From the NCBI RefSeq assembly GCF_900129845.1, contig NZ_FQXB01000003.1, forward strand, positions 124,001 to 188,000: DNA of 64,000 nucleotides. The letters run 5' to 3'. The notes beneath the pieces are model-generated. The model searched no databases, had not been told where the DNA came from, and was given only the letters and a program-made list of their open reading frames with translations. Position 1 is the stretch's first letter; each line of letters opens with the position of its first letter. Below are positions 6,041 to 60,155 of this stretch, piece after piece. Origin of the DNA: Cognatiyoonia sediminum. Its GTDB lineage: Bacteria > Pseudomonadota > Alphaproteobacteria > Rhodobacterales > Rhodobacteraceae. Position numbers and translations under genes: made by a program.

Positions 6041-8970
6041 TTCACAGGCTCCGGTTTTGCATCGTCACTGACGCTCCATTCCCCGAAGCGCGACAGGTGG
6101 TCGTAGTTTCCAATGTCCGATTTCTTGAACATCGCGATGCGGGCGGAATATCCGCGATCTTGGTCGTTCCAATTGGTGATGAGCTTGAGAAGGTCCGCCC
6201 AAACTTGGTCCGCAGACACTTCATCCAATGGCGCGTCGACGGCGGCGACTTTTGACCCGATGCCAAGGAACTTTGCCTCTTTGACGGCGGTTGCGGTGAT
6301 CCTTTCAAAGGCCCCACGCTCCTGCATCGCGGCCTCCAATAGCAGCTGTTTGTCAAAATGGCGCTGTTGCGGTTTGGACGGAAGGCTACCCGTTTTGTAA
6401 TCGTAAATCGCGGCGAGACCATCGTTGGTCAGGTCGATGCGGTCGGCAATACCGACGAGCGTGAAATCGGGAAGATCGGATGACAGTTTGCCGCGAACTT
6501 CTGTGTAGCCTTTTGTTCGTTGATCCTGACGCTTGGCCTCCTGCGTAAGGAAGGCGGGAATGATCGACTTCAGGCGGCTTTCCCATTGTAAGCGGACGTG
6601 AGGCCAAGGGCAGCCTTTGAGCAGAACCTTCTCTGCGATTTTCAGAAGCTCGTCTTCCGCATCCGCTGTTAGCCCGGCCTCGGTGAAATGCTGCAAAATC
6701 TTGTGAAACAGCACGCCGCGCAACTGGTATTCTTGGCGAACCGAAAGCTGGTTCAACGGACGCAAACGCAGCAACGCTTCAGCGTAGATTGCGTAAGGAT
6801 CACGGATCAGGGTTTTGATCTTGGTGACGGAAAGTTGCTTTGGTCGATGATTGATGGGTGGTTGCGGGGACGGACGATGCGTTGGGTTCGGTTGCTCTGT
6901 TACGCTAAGCTGGCTTTCCGCCGCTTGAACCCAGACATTCCCCCGCTCTTTCATTTCATCTAGCGCTTTGGGACCGTGATTATTGGGCAAGCCGGATAGA
7001 AGGTTCGCAAGGCGATTGACCCAACGCGATGGAACAGTGTCTGAATCTGCCGTTCTGACCGACCGCGAAATCACCACTTCTTTTGAAGACAACGCCTGTT
7101 GGTAATCATGCGCGGAGAGGCCGATCCTTCGATCTGGCGACAAAAGCCCAACGTCTTTTCGCATCTGACGATTGAGCCATGGGTCTGGATTTGGGGCAGG
7201 TGGCCAGACGCCGTCGTTCAACCCGCCGAGGATCACAAGGTCGGCGGATTGAACCCTCGATTCCAAGGTGCCAAGGATCAAAAGATCTGGCCGACCTTCA
7301 TCGTGATTGCGAACGGTTTCGTTTGCCAGATATCCGCGGACGAGGTTCGTGTAGTCCCGAAGCGAAACAGCGCCGGAGGACTGCGCTGCTTCGGTAAGTG
7401 AAGTGATGGCTTGTTCCACCGAGCGACCTTCGGCTTCTAACCAAAGCTCGCCCATTTCGGATGAGTCCGGTCCAGCAGAAAGATATTCGGCAATGGCAAT
7501 GTGGTGGCGAAGGTAGTCTTCAAGGGGCGCGTTAGGTGACACTGTGTTGTCGAATACGGCTTTCTTCAACCAGCCCAACCAAACAACGATTTCGGGGTCT
7601 GAATTTCTGCGTCTTTCAGCAAAATCACCTAGCGTTTCTACGTCGACGCTCACTTTGCCCGAACGCCTGAGCAAAAGCTCCAACTCGCGGGTCCGTAAAA
7701 GATGTTGGCCGCGGTCCATGTTGCCGGTGTGAACGATGGGGTGTTTGAGTAGCGTTACCAGTTTTTCCGCCGTCATCGGTGGGAGGAACAGATCCATAAC
7801 TTGGCACAGCAATCGCCCGGGCGGTGTGAGCGTCAGTGGAACACCCGCGCTGTCATCGGGCACCAAATCCCAGCGATCCAAAGCGGCTGCAACTTGACGG
7901 GTGAGATTTCGGTCGGGCGAAATGAGCGCGACTGTTTTTTGTTCTTGAAGCGCATAGCGCATCCGGATCGCGATGGCCTCTGCCTCGACTCGTGGTGATG
8001 GCGCTTCGATCAAGGACAGGGTTTCTGTAGCAACGGTCAATTCGCCGAGCTTAGGGCCTTCTTCAAGCCAAGCATCTGTGACAGGAGCCGGTCGCAAAGA
8101 GAGCGAAATTAGATCGTTGAGTGGGCTGTGTTGCGCTGGGCAAGACGACCATTGTTCGACGTCTACAACACTCAAGTCCATCTCTTGGAGGAAATTCCAA
8201 AACCGAAACTGTGGATGATCTTCTTGGATCGAAGAACCATCTTTTCCGAGTTCCGGCCACACATCCGCCGGCATCGCCCAATCGAACCCTGGCAATAGAA
8301 CTGCGCCATGCGGAAGGGCGGCGACGGCTTTCATAAGAATGCGCGTTGTTTTCCGTGAACCAGTCGATCCCAAAACGATGACAGGATGATCGGGCGGGTT
8401 GTCTGCCCAATGCTCAATCTGTCGTTCGACCGCTTGCTGTTGCAAGGCACCGGCAATTTGGCCTTGATCCAAAATCGGCTCTACGATTTTGAGGAAATCC
8501 AAAGCACGGGACCAGTGGCCGGATTGGTCAGTAATGTCCAGCGATTTCAGGTCTTCGAAACTTACCCCTTCCTCGGCCATTTCATCGAGCAAGCTGACGA
8601 GGCTGTCGGTCAAAGGAAAGAGCGAGGACTTGGGTGCAATATCGGGCGCTGCATCCAAAAGCGATGAGATCAGGCGCGAAATTTCGAGTTTCAGTTGCAG
8701 CGCATTTGGTGCGGTTTCGGCACCGCTAAACAACGGGTCGGAGCTGATGTCGGTCAGCAATTTAATTCTTGGGACAAGGGAATCTGGCCCGCGGTCAAAC
8801 GCCTCTCGTAAGCTTCTTTGCATACGCGCCGTGTTGACGAAAACCTCGGACTTGGCGATTTGAACGGGCGAAAGCCCTTCGCAGAAATCATGGAACCCAC
8901 TTGCGAATGCCTCTGCTACATTCGTTCCAAGAGGCAGGCCGTAGATTTTGGATTTTGGGCGATCACTCAT
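6037..8970 (-). CDS. addB: Double-strand break repair protein AddB
   Basis: Partner subunit of AddA, 977 residues from the ATG at 8968-8970 (MSDRPKSKIYGLPLG). The helicase-like N-terminal part contains LGSTGSRKTTRILMKA where a Walker-A-like loop is expected, with Arg in place of the usual Gly. The C-terminal RecB-type nuclease has GIADRIDL followed by IYDYKTG. The start is chosen because it gives an 8-base overlap with the preceding murU-like gene; a longer frame begins inside that gene. Gene order is the standard one in alphaproteobacteria. Confidence 0.94.
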   Translation of the reverse strand: MSDRPKSKIYGLPLGTNVAEAFASGFHDFCEGLSPVQIAKSEVFVNTARMQRSLREAFDRGPDSLVPRIKLLTDISSDPLFSGAETAPNALQLKLEISRLISSLLDAAPDIAPKSSLFPLTDSLVSLLDEMAEEGVSFEDLKSLDITDQSGHWSRALDFLKIVEPILDQGQIAGALQQQAVERQIEHWADNPPDHPVIVLGSTGSRKTTRILMKAVAALPHGAVLLPGFDWAMPADVWPELGKDGSSIQEDHPQFRFWNFLQEMDLSVVDVEQWSSCPAQHSPLNDLISLSLRPAPVTDAWLEEGPKLGELTVATETLSLIEAPSPRVEAEAIAIRMRYALQEQKTVALISPDRNLTRQVAAALDRWDLVPDDSAGVPLTLTPPGRLLCQVMDLFLPPMTAEKLVTLLKHPIVHTGNMDRGQHLLRTRELELLLRRSGKVSVDVETLGDFAERRRNSDPEIVVWLGWLKKAVFDNTVSPNAPLEDYLRHHIAIAEYLSAGPDSSEMGELWLEAEGRSVEQAITSLTEAAQSSGAVSLRDYTNLVRGYLANETVRNHDEGRPDLLILGTLESRVQSADLVILGGLNDGVWPPAPNPDPWLNRQMRKDVGLLSPDRRIGLSAHDYQQALSSKEVVISRSVRTADSDTVPSRWVNRLANLLSGLPNNHGPKALDEMKERGNVWVQAAESQLSVTEQPNPTHRPSPQPPINHRPKQLSVTKIKTLIRDPYAIYAEALLRLRPLNQLSVRQEYQLRGVLFHKILQHFTEAGLTADAEDELLKIAEKVLLKGCPWPHVRLQWESRLKSIIPAFLTQEAKRQDQRTKGYTEVRGKLSSDLPDFTLVGIADRIDLTNDGLAAIYDYKTGSLPSKPQQRHFDKQLLLEAAMQERGAFERITATAVKEAKFLGIGSKVAAVDAPLDEVSADQVWADLLKLITNWNDQDRGYSARIAMFKKSDIGNYDHLSRFGEWSVSDDAKPEPVK

Positions 8971-49476: not shown

Positions 49477-49629
49477 ATGTCCAATCACTGCTTATCTTCG
49501 GTCATACAGGTGACCGAGCAACGTTCTTATTTCTTTGCCGGTGCGACTGGTGCTTCGCCAACTTTTGACGAACTTGCCGCCTTTGAACCTGACAAGATAA
49601 GAAGTTTCTTTACGTCGACGTTCATTTAA
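49477..49629 (+). CDS. Possible small protein (50 residues)
   Basis: Frame starting MSNHCLSSVIQVTEQRSYFF and ending IRSFFTSTFI. There is a GGCGG about 10 bases upstream. It has one Cys and an acidic centre. A longer start at 49408 would include the terminator hairpin. It is unrecognised. Because it is next to a putative peptidyl or carrier-bound amino acid hydroxylase, a role as a peptide substrate is possible but unproved. Confidence 0.25.
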   Translation: MSNHCLSSVIQVTEQRSYFFAGATGASPTFDELAAFEPDKIRSFFTSTFI

Positions 49630-49670
49630 GTACCTTTCCGTTGAATCCCCACCAAAATGAGTGGTGAAAA

Positions 49671-50333
49671 ATGCTAAAACGAAGCACCATCCATTTGCAA
49701 GAAAAGTTGATGCAAACTTGGCCAGGACGTGCCCTCGATCCGCGCGGAATTGTTCGTATTTCAAATGAATCAGGCGAAAAACATCCAATATTTTGGATTT
49801 TTAACTCCGCGCGTACAGCCGAGGCTCTCGCGAAGTTTCTTGGGCCCGACCAGCCTATAGTCTTTACTAGATCGACAACACTTATGTTTTCCGAATTCGA
49901 GGCCAGATCGAAGGGCGCGGAAGAACTCTCTCGGCATGCACTTTTGTATATCAAAAAGGAAGTTGACTTCACCAATCTACGCATCGGCACAGCTTGCGAA
50001 GGGAACAAGCTTCTTTCGCTCATTTGTGCAGATTTAAAGGAATCGGGTGCAAAAATACCCGCGTTATACCTCATTAACTGTAGTTTGCTCTTGCCTGCGC
50101 TCGGTCTTCCAGCGCTCTTGATCTACGGCGATGAAGATCTTCGATATGACCCGTTCTGCGATCCATCGAGAGACGCTGAATACGAGGCTTCCTGCAAGTT
50201 CTCTAAGTTTAGGCGTGTTGTTTTACCCGCAAAGCACGCAAGATATTTTACCCCAAAAAATATTCGAAAGGGTTGGGAAAACTACGAAGAATTTTTGTCG
50301 GAGCTTTCTATTAGCGCCGCCGCTAGCTCTTGA
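49671..50333 (+). CDS. Thioesterase-like alpha/beta hydrolase with Cys nucleophile
   Basis: 220 residues. I place it in the thioesterase-type alpha/beta hydrolase group from three elements: a nucleophile elbow IGTACEGN with Cys109 in place of Ser, the acidic strand LLIYGDEDLRYDPF (Asp154/156), and a late His in LPAKHARYF (His189). Such proteins release acyl or aminoacyl groups from carrier proteins. The gene converges on the carrier-protein gene with a 52-base overlap of 3' ends. Family assignment is by motif only. Confidence 0.6.
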   Translation: MLKRSTIHLQEKLMQTWPGRALDPRGIVRISNESGEKHPIFWIFNSARTAEALAKFLGPDQPIVFTRSTTLMFSEFEARSKGAEELSRHALLYIKKEVDFTNLRIGTACEGNKLLSLICADLKESGAKIPALYLINCSLLLPALGLPALLIYGDEDLRYDPFCDPSRDAEYEASCKFSKFRRVVLPAKHARYFTPKNIRKGWENYEEFLSELSISAAASS

Positions 50334-50551
50334 ACTGTCGGATGGTTCAACACTATTGAAGGGTGTACATCACGGCCCAAACTTTCCTCTAGTTCAGCAC
50401 ACAATGCCACCAAAGCAAGGGAATCTCCGCCTAAGTCAAAGAAATCACTCTCAGCTTCGACGACTTCCCCTGGAAAAAGTTTCTCAAATAGCTTCACCAT
50501 CTCGGCCAATTCAATCTTAGAAACTGACAAAGGTATCTCCACTAACTTCAA
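50282..50551 (-). CDS. Acyl/peptidyl carrier protein
   Basis: 89 residues. The phosphopantetheine site is DFFDLGGDSLALVAL with Ser44, and the helix 3-4 region HPTVQELAAALIE fits peptidyl carrier proteins of NRPS type rather than fatty-acid ACPs. It is the third gene of the minus-strand operon and its first bases overlap the adenylating enzyme by 35 bases; a TTG start at 50530 would reduce that to 14. Confidence 0.85.
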   Translation of the reverse strand: MKLVEIPLSVSKIELAEMVKLFEKLFPGEVVEAESDFFDLGGDSLALVALCAELEESLGRDVHPSIVLNHPTVQELAAALIESSDKNSS

Positions 50552-51980
50552 CTAGAGCTTTGAGTTCGCGTAGACTGATTTTTTCAGCAGCGTTCCGCGG
50601 TAACTTTCGCCTGACATATATACGATCTGGGCGACGGTAGCTCGACAAGGACCTTCTAATCAACGTTCGGACAACAGTTCTACTAATCTCGCTTTCCACA
50701 GCTAGGAATACGACGTCGTCACCAGTTTCAGGATCAGCGATAGCGAAAGCGATGCAATCTGAAATGCCCTGGAGAGATCGAATGTCGGACTCGAGATCGG
50801 CTAGATTAATGTTTATTGAATGACGTATCGCGTTTTGTTCGGTTCTGCCTGTTAGAAAAAGGAAACCGTCTTCGTCTATGTACCCTAGATCTCCCGTTTC
50901 GATTTCAACCGCGTTTGGGTGCAATGTATTTTTTGCAAAGACATGTCCAATACCTCCTGCAGGTGTGGCCTGACCGTTCGGCCCAATGATGCGAACGACA
51001 ATGCTATCGAATGGGCGACCGACGGAACCACCTTTTTGTAAAGCTTCACCGCCAGAAAGTCGAGAGATTGGTCCGATACCACTCAGTGAATAAGAGGATT
51101 CGATATTCGGTGTCAAAATTTCAAAAGCACGCCTGAGATCCCTACCAGAAACGGGTCCGCCGACTGTTCTTAGCTGTTTCAAATGTGGAAATGCAGGTTC
51201 GATCCGAGATTTCAAATCCACCACATGGTAGTTGATTAACTCTCGCAGGGCTGCAGGTGATAGACTGGCCACCCCCAAATCTTCACGAGAAAGGTTTTTG
51301 TAAACGTCCTTAGTCAGATAAAAGGAAAACAGATCGATGATCGGCGCTCCCAGAAAAAGCCAACGTATCCAAGCAAAGGACATTGCACTAAAAGAAAGGT
51401 TCCCAATCATCAGACGAAACAATGAGAGTTCCGCCCCCAATCCGATCGTCGTTTCCAAGTTTGCTATACCGACAGCCAGCCGGCTATGCGTAACGCCACG
51501 AACCTTGGGGACCCCTGTTGTACCCGAAGACGTGAACACAATCGCGTCGTCTTCTGGCCGACAAGCAGAGAATGACAAGAGGGTCTCCGAGGGCGCAATA
51601 TCTCGCGGGATCGCTTCAAAATCGGATCGGCGCTGAAATGTGGGCAGATCGCTAAACTTGAATTTGACCTGCGCCGCGTCACAAATAGCGCTCATGTCCG
51701 CGGCCGACTGCCTCGGATCTAGGAAGACGACCCGAGCTCTCAAATCCCAAAGGGCAAGGGCGCATTCCAACCCTCTTCCTGCCGTTGTGCAAAGGATGGC
51801 TACCGTGTCTCCCTTTGCTATCCCAAACCTAAGTAAGAGCTTCCTCAGAGTCGAAGCTCGTGCTACAAACTCGAACCTTGTTGTCACTCGTCCTTCGAAC
51901 TCAACGCAAGGAGCGTCCGGGTACGACCCCGCATGCTCAAGTATGCGTTGGCCAATGTGAACTTCAGAAATCTCATCCAT
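50517..51980 (-). CDS. Stand-alone adenylation enzyme (NRPS-like)
   Basis: 487 residues of the ANL superfamily. ATP loop FTSSGTTGVPKV (149-160), SYSLSGIGPIS at the A5 position, A7/A8 TGDLGYIDEDGFLFLTGR, and the A10 Lys in PRNAAEKISL (~467). With the carrier protein next to it, it probably adenylates an amino or carboxylic acid and loads it onto Ser44 of that protein. The ATG at 51978-51980 overlaps the hydroxylase stop by 8 bases. Confidence 0.85.
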   Translation of the reverse strand: MDEISEVHIGQRILEHAGSYPDAPCVEFEGRVTTRFEFVARASTLRKLLLRFGIAKGDTVAILCTTAGRGLECALALWDLRARVVFLDPRQSAADMSAICDAAQVKFKFSDLPTFQRRSDFEAIPRDIAPSETLLSFSACRPEDDAIVFTSSGTTGVPKVRGVTHSRLAVGIANLETTIGLGAELSLFRLMIGNLSFSAMSFAWIRWLFLGAPIIDLFSFYLTKDVYKNLSREDLGVASLSPAALRELINYHVVDLKSRIEPAFPHLKQLRTVGGPVSGRDLRRAFEILTPNIESSYSLSGIGPISRLSGGEALQKGGSVGRPFDSIVVRIIGPNGQATPAGGIGHVFAKNTLHPNAVEIETGDLGYIDEDGFLFLTGRTEQNAIRHSININLADLESDIRSLQGISDCIAFAIADPETGDDVVFLAVESEISRTVVRTLIRRSLSSYRRPDRIYVRRKLPRNAAEKISLRELKALVEVSGDTFVSF

Positions 51981-52962
51981 TGACGATCGAATCCGCTGAA
52001 GCAAACAACTCCTCACCTAGAAGCGATAGTTTTCCTTCCTTGGATACTGTGACAGCACAATCTCGATAGGCGTTTGCAGAGTCATCAATTATGCTCTGCA
52101 ACTTTTCTCTATCGAGCTTTGAACTGTTTCCGTCCAAAATGTCGATCCCCGCAGCCACCATTCGTGCCGAGACCCACATCGCATGGAAAATGCCTTCCAT
52201 CGGACGAGGTTGTTGCCGCAGGGGTGATGAATATGCAGCCTTTTCATCGTTTAGAACAACAGGATCGTCCAAATGGAAGAGGAACATTTGCAAATGAGAT
52301 GTTTCATGAACCAAGCTAAGGGCGATCTGCTCGGTCGATTCAAACTGATCCGGGTTCATTAATACTGAACCAAAAGCATCAAAAACTGCTGCGCCGCCAA
52401 AAGTCCGCGTGGCGACTGCCGAAGGTGACGCTAAATATATCTGAGGGGCCAGAGCTAATATCTCTTGCTTCCACGGCATTGACGACGAACCTATCAAATC
52501 CAATGCATCTTGTATCTGGGCTGTCGCTTGAGAAACCTCCTCCTCCGATGGCGCCACTAAAGAAACTGTCAGCCCCACATCATCGGCGTAAGCTCTTTGC
52601 AACAGAACAAGTTCGTCGGGGTCCAAAGCGATGTCAGAAAACGCTATTACGTTCAGAGATTGCGGTGCACCTCCAGTCGTTGCCGAAATCCGTTCCAACT
52701 GCTCTAGGCGATCGTCAAATTGCGATGCCGCATTTGAGAGAGCCGCTTCTATCAGCGCAGAATTCGCAGCAAAGATGCTAGCACTCGGGAAGTCACCTGG
52801 CCCAACCAACGTCCTTTGAAGAGTTTCTCTATCCAAAGCGCCCCGATACTGCTTTGGATTGGCCTCAAAAATCAGATGATCAAGGGATAGAACAATGCGT
52901 TCCACAAGTGTCGCTCGGACGTCCGTGATCCACTTCAGATTTGGCAGAACATAATTCGACAT
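51973..52962 (-). CDS. aKG-HExxH-type beta-hydroxylase homologue
   Basis: 329 residues. LVHETSH at 217-223 supplies an HExxH metal site, and downstream AAYSSPLRQQPRPMEGIFHAM (242-262) matches the conserved PWRxDPRPxxG...LHG segment of the HExxH-type 2-oxoglutarate-dependent hydroxylase family (TIGR04267), not a zinc protease. Members hydroxylate the beta carbon of residues in peptides or on carrier proteins. No signal peptide. It is the first gene of the A-carrier operon. Confidence 0.78.
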   Translation of the reverse strand: MSNYVLPNLKWITDVRATLVERIVLSLDHLIFEANPKQYRGALDRETLQRTLVGPGDFPSASIFAANSALIEAALSNAASQFDDRLEQLERISATTGGAPQSLNVIAFSDIALDPDELVLLQRAYADDVGLTVSLVAPSEEEVSQATAQIQDALDLIGSSSMPWKQEILALAPQIYLASPSAVATRTFGGAAVFDAFGSVLMNPDQFESTEQIALSLVHETSHLQMFLFHLDDPVVLNDEKAAYSSPLRQQPRPMEGIFHAMWVSARMVAAGIDILDGNSSKLDREKLQSIIDDSANAYRDCAVTVSKEGKLSLLGEELFASADSIVNG

Positions 52963-53033: not shown

Positions 53034-53921
53034 TTACAACCCAAAAACCTTCAAACTCTCTGGCATCTGTTCAGAAGGCTCCCATCCAAAATACTCCTCT
53101 AGAGAGGGTTCTTCGCGACACTGCAAGGGTCCAAATACGGCAGCGACCTGATCACCCTTTCCGGTTATCAAACCCAATGATCTTATTATCGATTGCGGCA
53201 GCCAAAACACCCTTGTTTCAATTTCCATCGATTTCCCCAGCATTTCGGCAAGATCCCGTGTGCCGACTTTCCGACCATCATTTGGTTCGAATATTAGACC
53301 ATCAGCTTTCTTCCAAACGGGATCTCCGGCTTCGACCATTTGTGAAAGAAGGGCACATAGGTTTACGATGGAAAGGTAGGTACGCGGCTCGCTCGCATTC
53401 GCGAGCGGCAAGGGCAGACCGCGTTGTACGAACTTGAGCAAGGTGCCAAAAGGTCCAGTAGCCCCCTCCCCATAGATCACAGGCGGTCGCAAGGTGACGA
53501 TCTGGCAGTTGTTCAATCCATCGGCCAACGCGTGTTCCGCTGCTAATTTCTGCACGCCATAGGGCCGTTTCGATCGGTCATTTTCTTCCGCCAATCTGGC
53601 GGCGATAGAACTCAAATGGATAAGGCGTTTCACCTCTGATCGGTTCACGCTGACAGCAACCCGTGCCGCAATGTCTTTGGTCTGCTCACCTTTCGGATCG
53701 ACGGTGCTGCCTGCTTTCGATGCCGCGAGATGTACGACCACATCGACGTCTTTCAAAAGATCGTTTGGAATATTCTCTCTCGCCAGATCGATGCTTGGCG
53801 TCCCGCTCCGCCCTATTCGCACAACGGTATGTCCGCAGCCTTCCAAGTGCTCACATAAATGCTTGCCCACGAAACCGGTCGCGCCGGTAACAAGGATGCG
53901 TTTCTTTTCAGTTTGGGACAT
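53034..53921 (-). CDS. NAD-dependent epimerase/dehydratase
   Basis: 295 residues of the extended SDR family. NAD motif VTGATGFVGKHLCEHL; active-site YGVQKLAAEH (YxxxK); substrate region LRPPVIYGEGATGPFG. It resembles UDP-sugar 4-epimerases or reductases of O-antigen loci. With the phosphoglycosyl transferase next to it, it probably makes the first sugar of the repeat unit. Confidence 0.85.
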   Translation of the reverse strand: MSQTEKKRILVTGATGFVGKHLCEHLEGCGHTVVRIGRSGTPSIDLARENIPNDLLKDVDVVVHLAASKAGSTVDPKGEQTKDIAARVAVSVNRSEVKRLIHLSSIAARLAEENDRSKRPYGVQKLAAEHALADGLNNCQIVTLRPPVIYGEGATGPFGTLLKFVQRGLPLPLANASEPRTYLSIVNLCALLSQMVEAGDPVWKKADGLIFEPNDGRKVGTRDLAEMLGKSMEIETRVFWLPQSIIRSLGLITGKGDQVAAVFGPLQCREEPSLEEYFGWEPSEQMPESLKVFGL

Positions 53922-53993
53922 GCCAACTCAAATCAATTGCTGGAAACCACTGTGGACCGAAAAGGAAACTGTGTCAGCAGGCTAGTATGCCAA

Positions 53994-54548
53994 TCAGGCC
54001 TTGATGGCGTCTCCGACACCCTTGCCGCGGATTGTCGCCCAGATAATCGAACAGTCGAGTTTGAAAGACCTGCCTTGCACGTATTCTCGGTCAATCAATG
54101 CGAGTTTCTCAGGCACTGACATATCGACACCTTGCACCTGTGCGAGACCTGTAATTCCGGGCGAGACATCATAGACTTTGTGAGCATCCCGTGCAGCAAT
54201 CAATGCGGTCTGAGACGGGAGGTTTGGGCGTGGGCCAACAAAGCTCATCTGGCCCATCAGGACGTTGAAAATCTGCGGCAGTTCGTCGAGTCCGGTTTTT
54301 CGAAGAAATCCACCGATTTTCGTGATCTGATTGGCGGAGGCTTCGTGAGAGGCGACTTCCGCAGTATCGACCGACATTGTTCTGATTTTGTAGCAGGTAA
54401 ATGGCACCTGCCCTTTGCCGACTCGCACCTGCTTTAAGATTGGCGAATGTCTGTCTTCAATGAATACCAGCGCCATAAGGGCGATCATAATGGGAACCAA
54501 AATGATCAATGATACCAAGCACAGGATCAGTTCAACAAAACGGTTCAT
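53994..54548 (-). CDS. Monotopic sugar phosphoglycosyl transferase (PglC/WcaJ type)
   Basis: 184 residues. One membrane-dipping helix near the N terminus, the Arg-Thr segment [10 protein letters not shown], and the hallmark [23 protein letters not shown]. It transfers a sugar phosphate onto undecaprenyl phosphate, starting assembly of a repeat unit. It is the small PglC-like form, lacking the four-helix domain of WbaP. Confidence 0.9.
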
Positions 54549-54653
54549 ATATCAGCCAATACCCTAGTTCATAAGACAAAGATCGTTTCGAAATGACCTA
54601 AGGTCACTTTGAATTCCAATACCTTCTCAACTCAAGGGTGTCAAAGCAGTGGC

Positions 54654-56573
54654 TTAGTGAGGTGCGCTTCCAGTTGTCGCAGGTTTGGCTTCAAACCCTT
54701 CGACATATTGTTCCAAAATCCCCCGAATGGCATTGGCCGAAGCTGTCTCGCTGGCCTTCTGGAGATCTTTGAGGATTCTCGCCATCTCAAGTTGGGACAC
54801 CGATGCCTCCTCTGCGCGCAGGATTTTTTCGTGTGGCGTGGGAAGCGCATTGTCCCCGATCAGAAGCTCTTCGTGCATTTTTTCACCGGGTCGCAACCCG
54901 ACGATTTCAATCTCGATTTGTCCATTCGGATTGTTGTCGTCCTTGATCGTAAGGCCTGACAGCTCGATCATCCTTTTCGCCAGCTCTTTGATTGATACGG
55001 CTTTACCCATATCGAGCACGAAAACATCTCCACCAGTCGCGTAAGCGCCCGCCAAAAGGACAAGCCGCGCCGCTTCTGGAATGGTCATAAAATAGCGCGA
55101 GATATTGTCATGGGTCAGCGTGATCGGGCCGCCTTCGGCAATCTGTTTCTGGAACAGCGGGATAACCGAACCGGATGACCCCAATACATTACCAAACCGC
55201 ACCATAGCAAATTTGGATTCTGGCGTTCTTGTTTGAAGATCCTGCACGACCAGCTCCGCCAATCGCTTCGTCGCGCCCATCACATTCGTTGGCCGCACCG
55301 CTTTATCTGTAGACACCAGAATGAAACGCTCAACCTCGGCAGCGGCCGCGGCTTCCGCAACGGTTTGAGTACCGACGACATTGTTGAATGTCCCGACAAC
55401 CTCATTCGTTTCGATCAAGGGGACATGTTTGTAAGCTGCCGCGTGCAACACAATATCGACATTGGATTCGGCAAGAACCTCATCAACCGTCATCCGATCA
55501 CAGACCGAACCCAATCTCGCAATCAGCTCGACGCCCAATTGCTTCGCGGTCGCTGCAAGTTCTCTTTCGATGGAATAGAGTGCAAATTCGCTATGTTCGA
55601 ACAGAACCAACCGGTGTGGGTTACATCTTATGATCTGATTGCAAAGTTCTGATCCGATCGACCCACCTGCCCCAGTGACCAAAATGCTGCGCCCAGCATA
55701 GGTTCGAGCGATTTCAGGCGTATCCAAATCAACTTTGTCTCGGGCCAAAAGCATGTCAGCATCGACCGGTTGCAGTTTATCGACAATCCCGCTTTCGCCG
55801 ATCAGTTCGCTGTAAGATGGAAGCGCGTAAACTTCACAATCCAGTTTGGAGAGCTCTTTGATCTTCTGACGCCTGACCCCTTCAGTGGCCGACGGCATCG
55901 CCAACAAAACACGCTGCACGCGTTTATTGCGCACCATGACGGCGAGCTTTTCCGCTGAATAAACCGGGAGGCCCGCAATCGTCATGCTTTGAAGCGTTAC
56001 GTTGTCATCGACGAACAGCACCGGGCGCATCTCAAAATCTTGGCGCAACGCGGCCATAAGCTGAACGCCCGCAGAACCAGCGCCGTAAATTGCCACAGGG
56101 ACGCGTTCGCTATCTCGACCCGAGATGTACATGAGCAAAGAACGCGCGAGAATACGGACCAGTATGTGAAGCGTCAAAAAGACCGTTCCGAAGATCAATG
56201 GCATAGACCGAGGACCATCCAGGCGAAGGAGGTAACTGACAACGATCGCCACGACAGTCAGGCACATCGCCGCCACCACGCCACGCCCGATATCTTGAAC
56301 TTCAAAGGCAATGAGCTTGATACGATTGAGCTTGGTGAGGCTAAAAATGGGGAGAGATGCGAGCAAGACCAAAACAAACAATGGGATTGAATCTTGCAGT
56401 TGCTGTGTTTCAACCTGCACGCCAAATCGCAGTGAAAACGCCCAATACATGCTGATCGGCACCAAAGCACAATCAATCATCAACAGTATGGCTCGCTTTA
56501 CGCCTCGAGGTAATGAAGCCAAGTATTGAAACATATTTTGAACCCAAACAGTCGCTGCATAGGTAGCCATCAA
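54654..56573 (-). CDS. Membrane-bound UDP-sugar 4,6-dehydratase (CapD/PglF/WbpM family)
   Basis: 639 residues. Four N-terminal membrane helices (~25-140), a CoA-binding-like Rossmann domain with IYGAGSAG, then the SDR domain with TGAGGSIGSELCNQI and the active-site VSTDKAVRPTNVMGATKR. Produces UDP-4-keto-6-deoxy sugars such as those for QuiNAc or bacillosamine. It shares the locus with the phosphoglycosyl transferase. Start: ATG at 56571-56573, or the adjacent one three bases down. Confidence 0.92.
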   Translation of the reverse strand: MMATYAATVWVQNMFQYLASLPRGVKRAILLMIDCALVPISMYWAFSLRFGVQVETQQLQDSIPLFVLVLLASLPIFSLTKLNRIKLIAFEVQDIGRGVVAAMCLTVVAIVVSYLLRLDGPRSMPLIFGTVFLTLHILVRILARSLLMYISGRDSERVPVAIYGAGSAGVQLMAALRQDFEMRPVLFVDDNVTLQSMTIAGLPVYSAEKLAVMVRNKRVQRVLLAMPSATEGVRRQKIKELSKLDCEVYALPSYSELIGESGIVDKLQPVDADMLLARDKVDLDTPEIARTYAGRSILVTGAGGSIGSELCNQIIRCNPHRLVLFEHSEFALYSIERELAATAKQLGVELIARLGSVCDRMTVDEVLAESNVDIVLHAAAYKHVPLIETNEVVGTFNNVVGTQTVAEAAAAAEVERFILVSTDKAVRPTNVMGATKRLAELVVQDLQTRTPESKFAMVRFGNVLGSSGSVIPLFQKQIAEGGPITLTHDNISRYFMTIPEAARLVLLAGAYATGGDVFVLDMGKAVSIKELAKRMIELSGLTIKDDNNPNGQIEIEIVGLRPGEKMHEELLIGDNALPTPHEKILRAEEASVSQLEMARILKDLQKASETASANAIRGILEQYVEGFEAKPATTGSAPH

Positions 56574-56806
56574 TCCTCAATCAAAGCGCGAGTTACAAAT
56601 TTTTCCGTGCTCCGTAGATCTTTGGCCAGATCGCCTAGAAATTTAAAGGTAGGTTAGTTTCGACGAAACGCTTTGTCCATTCAGATCAATAAAAGAGGCC
56701 TACTTGTTGCCATTTCATGTCGAGCCTCGCAGCTCGCAAGCACAACCCTGAACTGAAGATCCTGAGAGCTGAGCATTTTTGATAACTCTCTGCACGAAAA
56801 CGAGAA

Positions 56807-60155
<3,349 letters not shown>

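What the first reader, a model, noticed from the sequence alone, without database searches (positions are those of the whole stretch)
49477..52962. Dissected one-module NRPS with an HExxH 2-oxoglutarate hydroxylase
Seen: an HExxH-type hydroxylase homologue, a stand-alone adenylating enzyme and a single carrier protein overlap in a minus-strand operon (8 and 35 bases), and converge on a thioesterase-like protein with a Cys at the nucleophile elbow. Known: adenylation enzymes load carriers, and HExxH-type hydroxylases act on peptide- or carrier-bound residues. Inference: the four act in order to activate one amino acid, tether it, beta-hydroxylate it, and release or pass it on. No condensation domain or precursor peptide gene is obvious, and the product is unknown. 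The locus touches a polysaccharide cluster, so the product may decorate a surface glycan or lipid.
Basis: partly seen in the sequence, partly recalled or inferred. Interest (0 to 1): 0.85.

Follow-up and report, generated by a model that had tools for sequence, protein, structure and literature searches.

The report
Ribosomal peptide cassette with carrier-protein acyl transfer
The four enzyme genes are real and conserved as a unit, but they sit beside an overlooked 32-residue peptide gene, so this is most likely a small factory that hydroxylates a gene-encoded peptide and attaches an acyl group to it from a carrier protein, not a one-amino-acid non-ribosomal synthetase.

Summary
The observed genes are real: an aKG-HExxH hydroxylase, an adenylating enzyme, a carrier protein and a convergent Cys-thioesterase-fold protein. 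The same four genes occur together in 10 Rhodobacteraceae genomes, in three gene orders.

All 10 cassettes carry a ~30-residue peptide gene (window 49527-49625, minus). Its motifs are DxxKLLxL and K[VI]G, and it is under purifying selection (pooled pN/pS 0.23).

Of 16 related HExxH loci without A/carrier/TE, 12 also have a peptide gene with the same leader motif directly upstream of HExxH. Ten of those 12 have a shared ATP-grasp enzyme instead.

Best reading: a RiPP-type unit. HExxH hydroxylates the ribosomal peptide; A + carrier + Cys-TE activate a carboxylic acid and transfer it to the peptide. This resembles NosI/NosJ/NosK of nosiheptide and replaces the ATP-grasp ligase of sister loci.

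A single-module NRPS is disfavoured. The genome has no condensation domain, and the A enzyme lacks the Asp that binds an alpha-amino group in all 10 homologues. The polysaccharide link is not conserved.

Gene content, conservation, folds and selection were computed. Substrate, modified residue, bond and bioactivity are inferred.

The parts
49527..49625 (-). Conserved 32-aa peptide gene, proposed RiPP precursor: MNVDVKKLLILSGSKAASSSKVGEAPVAPAKK; GGAAAGG upstream of the ATG; divergent from the TE gene
   Evidence: homologues in all 10 cassettes; pN/pS pooled 0.23; profile hits at E<1e-11 only in the cassette genomes among 395 searched
49593..49616 (-). leader-type motif DVKKLLIL (DxxKLLxL), residues 4-11 of the peptide
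49557..49565 (-). KVG core-type motif, residues 21-23 of the peptide; the Lys is invariant in the cassette peptides
49671..50333 (+). Cys thioesterase-fold protein (220 aa), proposed acyltransferase or release enzyme
   Evidence: AF2 pLDDT 88; Foldseek top hits PKS/NRPS thioesterases; homologues fused to A-PCP in L024-L026 and L053
49995..49997 (+). Cys109 of the TE (GTACEG), proposed nucleophile; His189 at 50235-50237
   Evidence: both invariant in 9 aligned cassette proteins; Cys invariant in all 14 family members aligned
50282..50551 (-). carrier protein; likely TTG start at 50530 (14-nt overlap with A, as in Shimia)
   Evidence: PF00550 55.4 bits
50420..50422 (-). Ser of GGDSL, proposed phosphopantetheine site
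   Evidence: sequence
50517..51980 (-). stand-alone adenylating enzyme (ORF open to GTG 52016); Asp235 equivalent is Ser; catalytic Lys kept
   Evidence: PF00501; alignment with EntF and EntE; A3
51973..52962 (-). aKG-HExxH-type peptide beta-hydroxylase homologue (329 aa)
   Evidence: TIGR04267; AF2 pLDDT 86.7; Foldseek 8s5f E 2e-9
52294..52308 (-). HExxH motif HETSH, residues 219-223; H219, E220 and H223 invariant

Best explanation
This is a five-gene RiPP-type cassette. The 32-residue peptide is ribosomally made, and its DxxKLLxL segment probably serves as the recognition sequence. The aKG-HExxH enzyme hydroxylates a residue of the peptide, most likely in or next to the conserved KxG segment. 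In parallel, the stand-alone A enzyme activates a carboxylic acid, probably not a canonical alpha-amino acid, and loads it on the discrete carrier protein. The Cys thioesterase-fold protein takes the acyl group onto Cys109 and transfers it to the peptide, either to the conserved Lys amine or to the new hydroxyl. The A/carrier/TE trio replaces the ATP-grasp ligase that accompanies the same kind of peptide and HExxH enzyme in sister loci. Shown by computation: gene set, conservation, coding of the peptide, folds, the complementary pattern. Inferred: which residue is hydroxylated, the acyl substrate, the acceptor and the final product.
For: Peptide gene in all 10 cassettes, duplicated in L021 and L045 and tandem within L020. 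In L045-L047 it lies in one same-strand run TE-peptide(s)-HExxH-A-PCP. Purifying selection: pN/pS 0.11-0.29 in most pairs, the opposite pattern on the antisense strand. Peptide profile specific to cassette genomes. Cassette HExxH proteins form one clade, support 100/99. Twelve of 16 non-cassette HExxH loci, and the A-PCP-TE fusion locus L053, have a [DN]xx[KR]LL/LF-type peptide directly upstream. Ten of those 12 share an ATP-grasp enzyme that is absent from all cassettes and not found in this genome. Fold match to the ChlB HExxH aKG oxygenase. Characterised aKG-HExxH enzymes hydroxylate Asp, His, Phe, Gln or Pro in RiPP precursors (PMC12636437, PMC13060819). NosI/NosJ/NosK precedent for A + discrete carrier + alpha/beta hydrolase in a RiPP pathway (PMC5585349). 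A enzymes lack Asp235. A PPTase is present.
Against: No biochemistry. No conserved protease or exporter was found. The A substrate is unknown. Transfer of the acyl group to the peptide rests on analogy and on the complementary gene pattern. The window peptide is the most diverged (pN/pS 0.52 against L018). In the non-cassette loci the peptide was picked from a few nearby ORFs, so the shuffle statistic overstates significance. The ATP-grasp assignment of the shared partner is weak by sequence (best PDB E 5e-5). The HExxH enzyme could still act on the carrier-bound acyl group.
Confidence: 0.66

Rival explanations
1. Dissected one-module NRPS: A loads one amino acid on the carrier, HExxH beta-hydroxylates it while tethered, and the TE releases it as free beta-hydroxy acid or beta-lactone. 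The peptide gene is incidental or regulatory.
For: Precedents for hydroxylation on a carrier (NikQ) and proposed discrete TE release; a Cys TE forms the beta-lactone in obafluorin biosynthesis (PMC6668435); TE homologues are fused to A-PCP.
Against: Conserved coding peptide in every cassette; HExxH relatives pair with the same kind of peptide without any A or carrier; Asp235 absent; characterised HExxH enzymes found act on ribosomal peptides.
Confidence: 0.15
2. HExxH acts on the carrier-bound acyl group, and the TE then transfers the hydroxylated acyl group to the ribosomal peptide, as NosN acts on NosJ-bound indolic acid before NosK.
For: NosN modifies the NosJ-bound group (PMC5585349); the HExxH and A genes overlap.
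Against: HExxH relatives beside peptides occur without any carrier, so their substrate is more simply the peptide.
Confidence: 0.12
3. The A/carrier/TE trio attaches a residue or acyl group to a surface glycan or lipid made by the adjacent polysaccharide genes.
For: Minus-strand sugar genes end 71 bases upstream of the HExxH start; some distant TE homologues lie near glycosyltransferases.
Against: None of the other nine cassettes shares these neighbours; the sugar genes vary within the genus; the G+C of the cassette is lower than that of its neighbours.
Confidence: 0.04

Closest known systems
aKG-HExxH RiPP hydroxylases (ChlB HExxH domain, BpmH/BipH, PflC/PosC, PesO)
   Same: same protein family (TIGR04267) and fold (8s5f, E 2e-9); beside a precursor peptide gene
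   Different: none of the clusters described in the papers read contains an A enzyme, carrier and TE; the precursor here is ~30 aa with a DxxKLLxL leader and a KxG core, not an NHLP-type or radical-SAM cyclophane precursor
NosI/NosJ/NosK of nosiheptide (and LclJ/LclI/LclK of lactocillin)
   Same: stand-alone adenylating enzyme, discrete carrier protein and alpha/beta-hydrolase in a RiPP pathway (PMC5585349)
   Different: no thiopeptide machinery; the TE here has a Cys at the nucleophile elbow; paired with an aKG-HExxH enzyme; homology to NosI/J/K not tested; acceptor unknown
Sister loci: HExxH + [DN]xx[KR]LLG[FY] peptide + ATP-grasp enzyme (L048-L052, L054-L057, L066)
   Same: homologous HExxH enzyme; same leader-type motif; KxG-rich core
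   Different: an ATP-grasp ligase in place of A/carrier/TE; longer multi-repeat cores; apparently uncharacterised in the searches made
NRPS building-block modules such as NikP1/NikQ, and the obafluorin Cys-TE
   Same: carrier-tethered chemistry; Cys TE
   Different: ribosomal peptide present; no condensation domain in the genome; no Asp235; HExxH instead of P450

Membership tests
aKG-HExxH-type peptide beta-hydroxylase (TIGR04267) | score above the curated cut-off | tested here: met
   68.5 against 40 bits
aKG-HExxH-type peptide beta-hydroxylase (TIGR04267) | HExxH metal motif and the conserved SPxR..RP block | tested here: met
   H219, E220, H223, R249, R253 and P254 invariant in 7 homologues; aligned with 22nu and 8s5f
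aKG-HExxH-type peptide beta-hydroxylase (TIGR04267) | zincin-like aKG oxygenase fold | tested here: met
   AF2 model, Foldseek 8s5f E 2e-9 and 22ob E 4e-7
aKG-HExxH-type peptide beta-hydroxylase (TIGR04267) | Fe(II)- and 2-oxoglutarate-dependent hydroxylation | not testable with these tools
   needs an assay
RiPP biosynthetic cluster | conserved precursor peptide gene with the modifying enzymes | tested here: met
   10 of 10 cassettes; purifying selection
RiPP biosynthetic cluster | leader removal by a protease and export | tested here: inconclusive
   no conserved protease or exporter among shared neighbours; may lie elsewhere in the genome
RiPP biosynthetic cluster | modified peptide product | not testable with these tools
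   needs mass spectrometry
Non-ribosomal peptide synthetase module | A, carrier and TE functions | tested here: met
   by family and fold only
Non-ribosomal peptide synthetase module | condensation domain | tested here: not met
   no PF00668 in the whole genome; the control search rang in known genomes
Non-ribosomal peptide synthetase module | Asp235-type recognition of an alpha-amino acid | tested here: not met
   Ser/Gly/Pro at that place in all 10 homologues; exceptions such as McyG exist (PMC11253843)
NosI/J/K-like carrier acyl transfer | discrete A + discrete carrier + alpha/beta hydrolase with a RiPP precursor | tested here: met
   gene content and folds
NosI/J/K-like carrier acyl transfer | homology to NosI, NosJ and NosK | not tested
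   sequences not fetched
Graspetide / ATP-grasp RiPP | ATP-grasp ligase | tested here: not met
   the sister-locus ATP-grasp enzyme is absent from all cassettes and not found in this genome; present in sister loci

The most novel reading that the evidence does not exclude
An undescribed RiPP family of Rhodobacteraceae, defined by a DxxKLLx[LFY] leader, a KxG core and an aKG-HExxH hydroxylase. Its second, ATP-dependent coupling step is interchangeable: an ATP-grasp ligase in most lineages, and a dissected adenylation-carrier-Cys-thioesterase module that acylates the peptide in this lineage.
Probability: 0.5. Interest if true: 0.82.

Novelty: new variant of a known kind. Interest (0 to 1): 0.72.

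Why it matters
If true, it joins two worlds of peptide chemistry in a very small cassette: ribosomal peptide modification by the recently recognised aKG-HExxH oxygenases, and carrier-protein acyl chemistry borrowed from NRPS. It would show one coupling module replaced by an unrelated one (ATP-grasp by A/carrier/Cys-TE) on the same kind of precursor, give a compact system to reconstitute in vitro, and supply a leader motif for mining a family of short precursors that matched no Pfam or NCBIfam model.

Tried and rejected
Polysaccharide link: rejected as a conserved feature. tblastn of the HExxH and A proteins against plasmids: no match; the TE protein hit other, mostly NRPS-type loci. Own-genus search: two congeners lack the HExxH gene. 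Promoter/terminator scan: no more sites than shuffles. Homologue of the Shimia 2OG-Fe(II) oxygenase in this genome: none. Weak peptide hits in G127, G384 and G220: E 0.001-0.04, and G127 lies beside a DegP-like gene, so treated as chance. Precursors against NCBIfam and Pfam: nothing over a cut-off. Beta-lactone or free beta-hydroxy amino acid as product: kept as a rival only. Comparison with the shuttle acyltransferases SyrC and CmaE was by literature only; no sequences fetched.
Full report
OBSERVATION. Window 49527-52962 holds five genes, not four. The HExxH protein (51973-52962, minus) scores 68.5 bits to TIGR04267 against a cut-off of 40. The adenylating enzyme and the carrier protein match PF00501 and PF00550. 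The convergent protein 49671-50333 matches no family, but its model (pLDDT 88) is closest to PKS/NRPS thioesterases, and its homologues occupy the TE position of A-PCP-TE proteins in L024-L026 and L053. Its Cys109 and His189 are invariant.

CO-OCCURRENCE. The four enzyme genes occur together in three Shimia genomes (L018-L020), Xinfangfangia (L021), Cypionkella (L022) and four unnamed Rhodobacteraceae (L044-L047), besides the window. There are three gene orders: HExxH-A-PCP with convergent TE; HExxH-A facing PCP-TE; and TE-HExxH-A-PCP on one strand. Beyond these genes and the peptide, the only neighbour shared among cassettes with an apparent link is a 2OG-Fe(II) oxygenase (PF13640), next to the TE in all three Shimia; scattered matches among transport and regulator ORFs look incidental. 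The polysaccharide genes beside the window cassette are not shared. Two congeners lack the HExxH gene, and the cassette has lower G+C than its surroundings, consistent with acquisition.

THE PEPTIDE. A search for short conserved ORFs outside the enzyme genes gave one family that recurs across the cassettes; tblastn then found it in all ten. Consensus MKLDxxKLLxLKGSAAAAAxKVGxEPxxP, invariant M1, K7, L9, L11, K21, P26. L021 and L045 carry two copies, and L020 has the unit twice in one peptide. In L045-L047 the peptide lies between TE and HExxH on the same strand. It is coding: pN/pS is 0.11-0.29 in eight of nine pairs and 0.52 between window and L018 (pooled 0.23), with the opposite pattern in the antisense reading of most pairs. 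Two hundred scrambled versions of the window peptide never came below E 0.01 against the cassette loci, whereas the real one reaches 5e-7. A profile search of 395 genomes, nearly one per genus, found it at E<1e-11 only in the five genomes of that sample that have the cassette.

SISTER LOCI. The ten cassette HExxH proteins form one clade with support 100/99. Sixteen other homologues examined have no A/PCP/TE set beside them. In 12 of these 16, an ORF directly upstream of HExxH begins with [DN]xx[KR]LLG[FY]-type motifs and carries mostly KxG repeats; L053, whose HExxH precedes a single A-PCP-TE protein, has KLDTGKLFGF and two LGRLFSKRGxVE repeats. The leader motif occurs in 27 of 28 peptides considered, shuffled mean 0.09; because the non-cassette peptides were chosen among a few nearby ORFs, this overstates significance. 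Ten of the 12 share a divergent enzyme with the D-Ala-D-Ala-ligase-type ATP-grasp signature (PDB E 5e-5); L058 and L067 have RimK-like ATP-grasp proteins next to HExxH. The shared enzyme is absent from all cassettes and was not found in this genome. A/PCP/TE and ATP-grasp are thus complementary.

MECHANISM. Characterised aKG-HExxH enzymes act on ribosomal peptides: beta-hydroxylation of Asp and His (ChlB), Gln plus backbone cleavage (PflC/PosC), Pro (PesO) (PMC12636437, PMC13060819). The model of the window protein matches the ChlB HExxH domain structure 8s5f. The simplest reading is that HExxH hydroxylates the small peptide. NosI/NosJ/NosK show how a stand-alone adenylating enzyme, discrete carrier and alpha/beta hydrolase deliver an acyl group in a RiPP pathway (PMC5585349; there the acceptor was not shown directly). 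By analogy, and because the trio stands where sister loci have an ATP-grasp ligase, I propose that A + carrier + Cys-TE acylate the peptide, at the conserved Lys or at the new hydroxyl. The A enzyme keeps the catalytic Lys but has Ser, Gly or Pro at the Asp235 place in all ten homologues, so a canonical alpha-amino acid is unlikely though not excluded (exceptions in PMC11253843). An Arg eight residues further on is invariant and may bind an acidic group; this is inference. A phosphopantetheinyl transferase is present; condensation domains are absent.

VERDICT. What is shown: genes, conservation, coding of the peptide, folds, complementary gene pattern. What is inferred: substrate, modified residue, bond, product. 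All component kinds are known; the combination was not found in the papers searched, which cover open-access text only.

Noticed in passing
L048-L052, L054-L057, L066 (with L058, L059, L067 related): Apparent uncharacterised RiPP family: [DN]xx[KR]LLG[FY]-leader peptide with KxG repeats + aKG-HExxH enzyme + divergent ATP-grasp enzyme, in several Rhodobacteraceae and relatives.
   Followed up: partly
L053:5267-9006: HExxH gene preceded by a 69-aa peptide with two LGRLFSKRGxVE repeats and followed by a single 841-aa A-PCP-TE protein: a fused version of the same logic.
   Followed up: partly
L018:4026-4706 and the same place in L019, L020: A 2OG-Fe(II) oxygenase (PF13640) next to the TE in all three Shimia cassettes; possibly a second hydroxylation step.
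   Followed up: partly
L023:11980-19015: Phaeobacter plasmid operon with a homologue of the TE, an AMP-binding enzyme, a 728-aa protein with a C-terminal P450-like stretch, a carrier protein and a carbamoyltransferase.
   Followed up: no
L024:5575-9678: Paracoccus aminophilus plasmid protein fusing a Mur ligase to A-PCP-TE.
   Followed up: no
L070, upstream of HExxH at 8002: A different repeat peptide (DTTxAxPQTGK repeats) before an HExxH homologue, another candidate precursor type.
   Followed up: no
window 53034-58914: Minus-strand polysaccharide genes: epimerase/reductase, sugar transferase, 4,6-dehydratase-like, glycosyltransferase, UDP-galactopyranose mutase; differ within the genus.
   Followed up: partly
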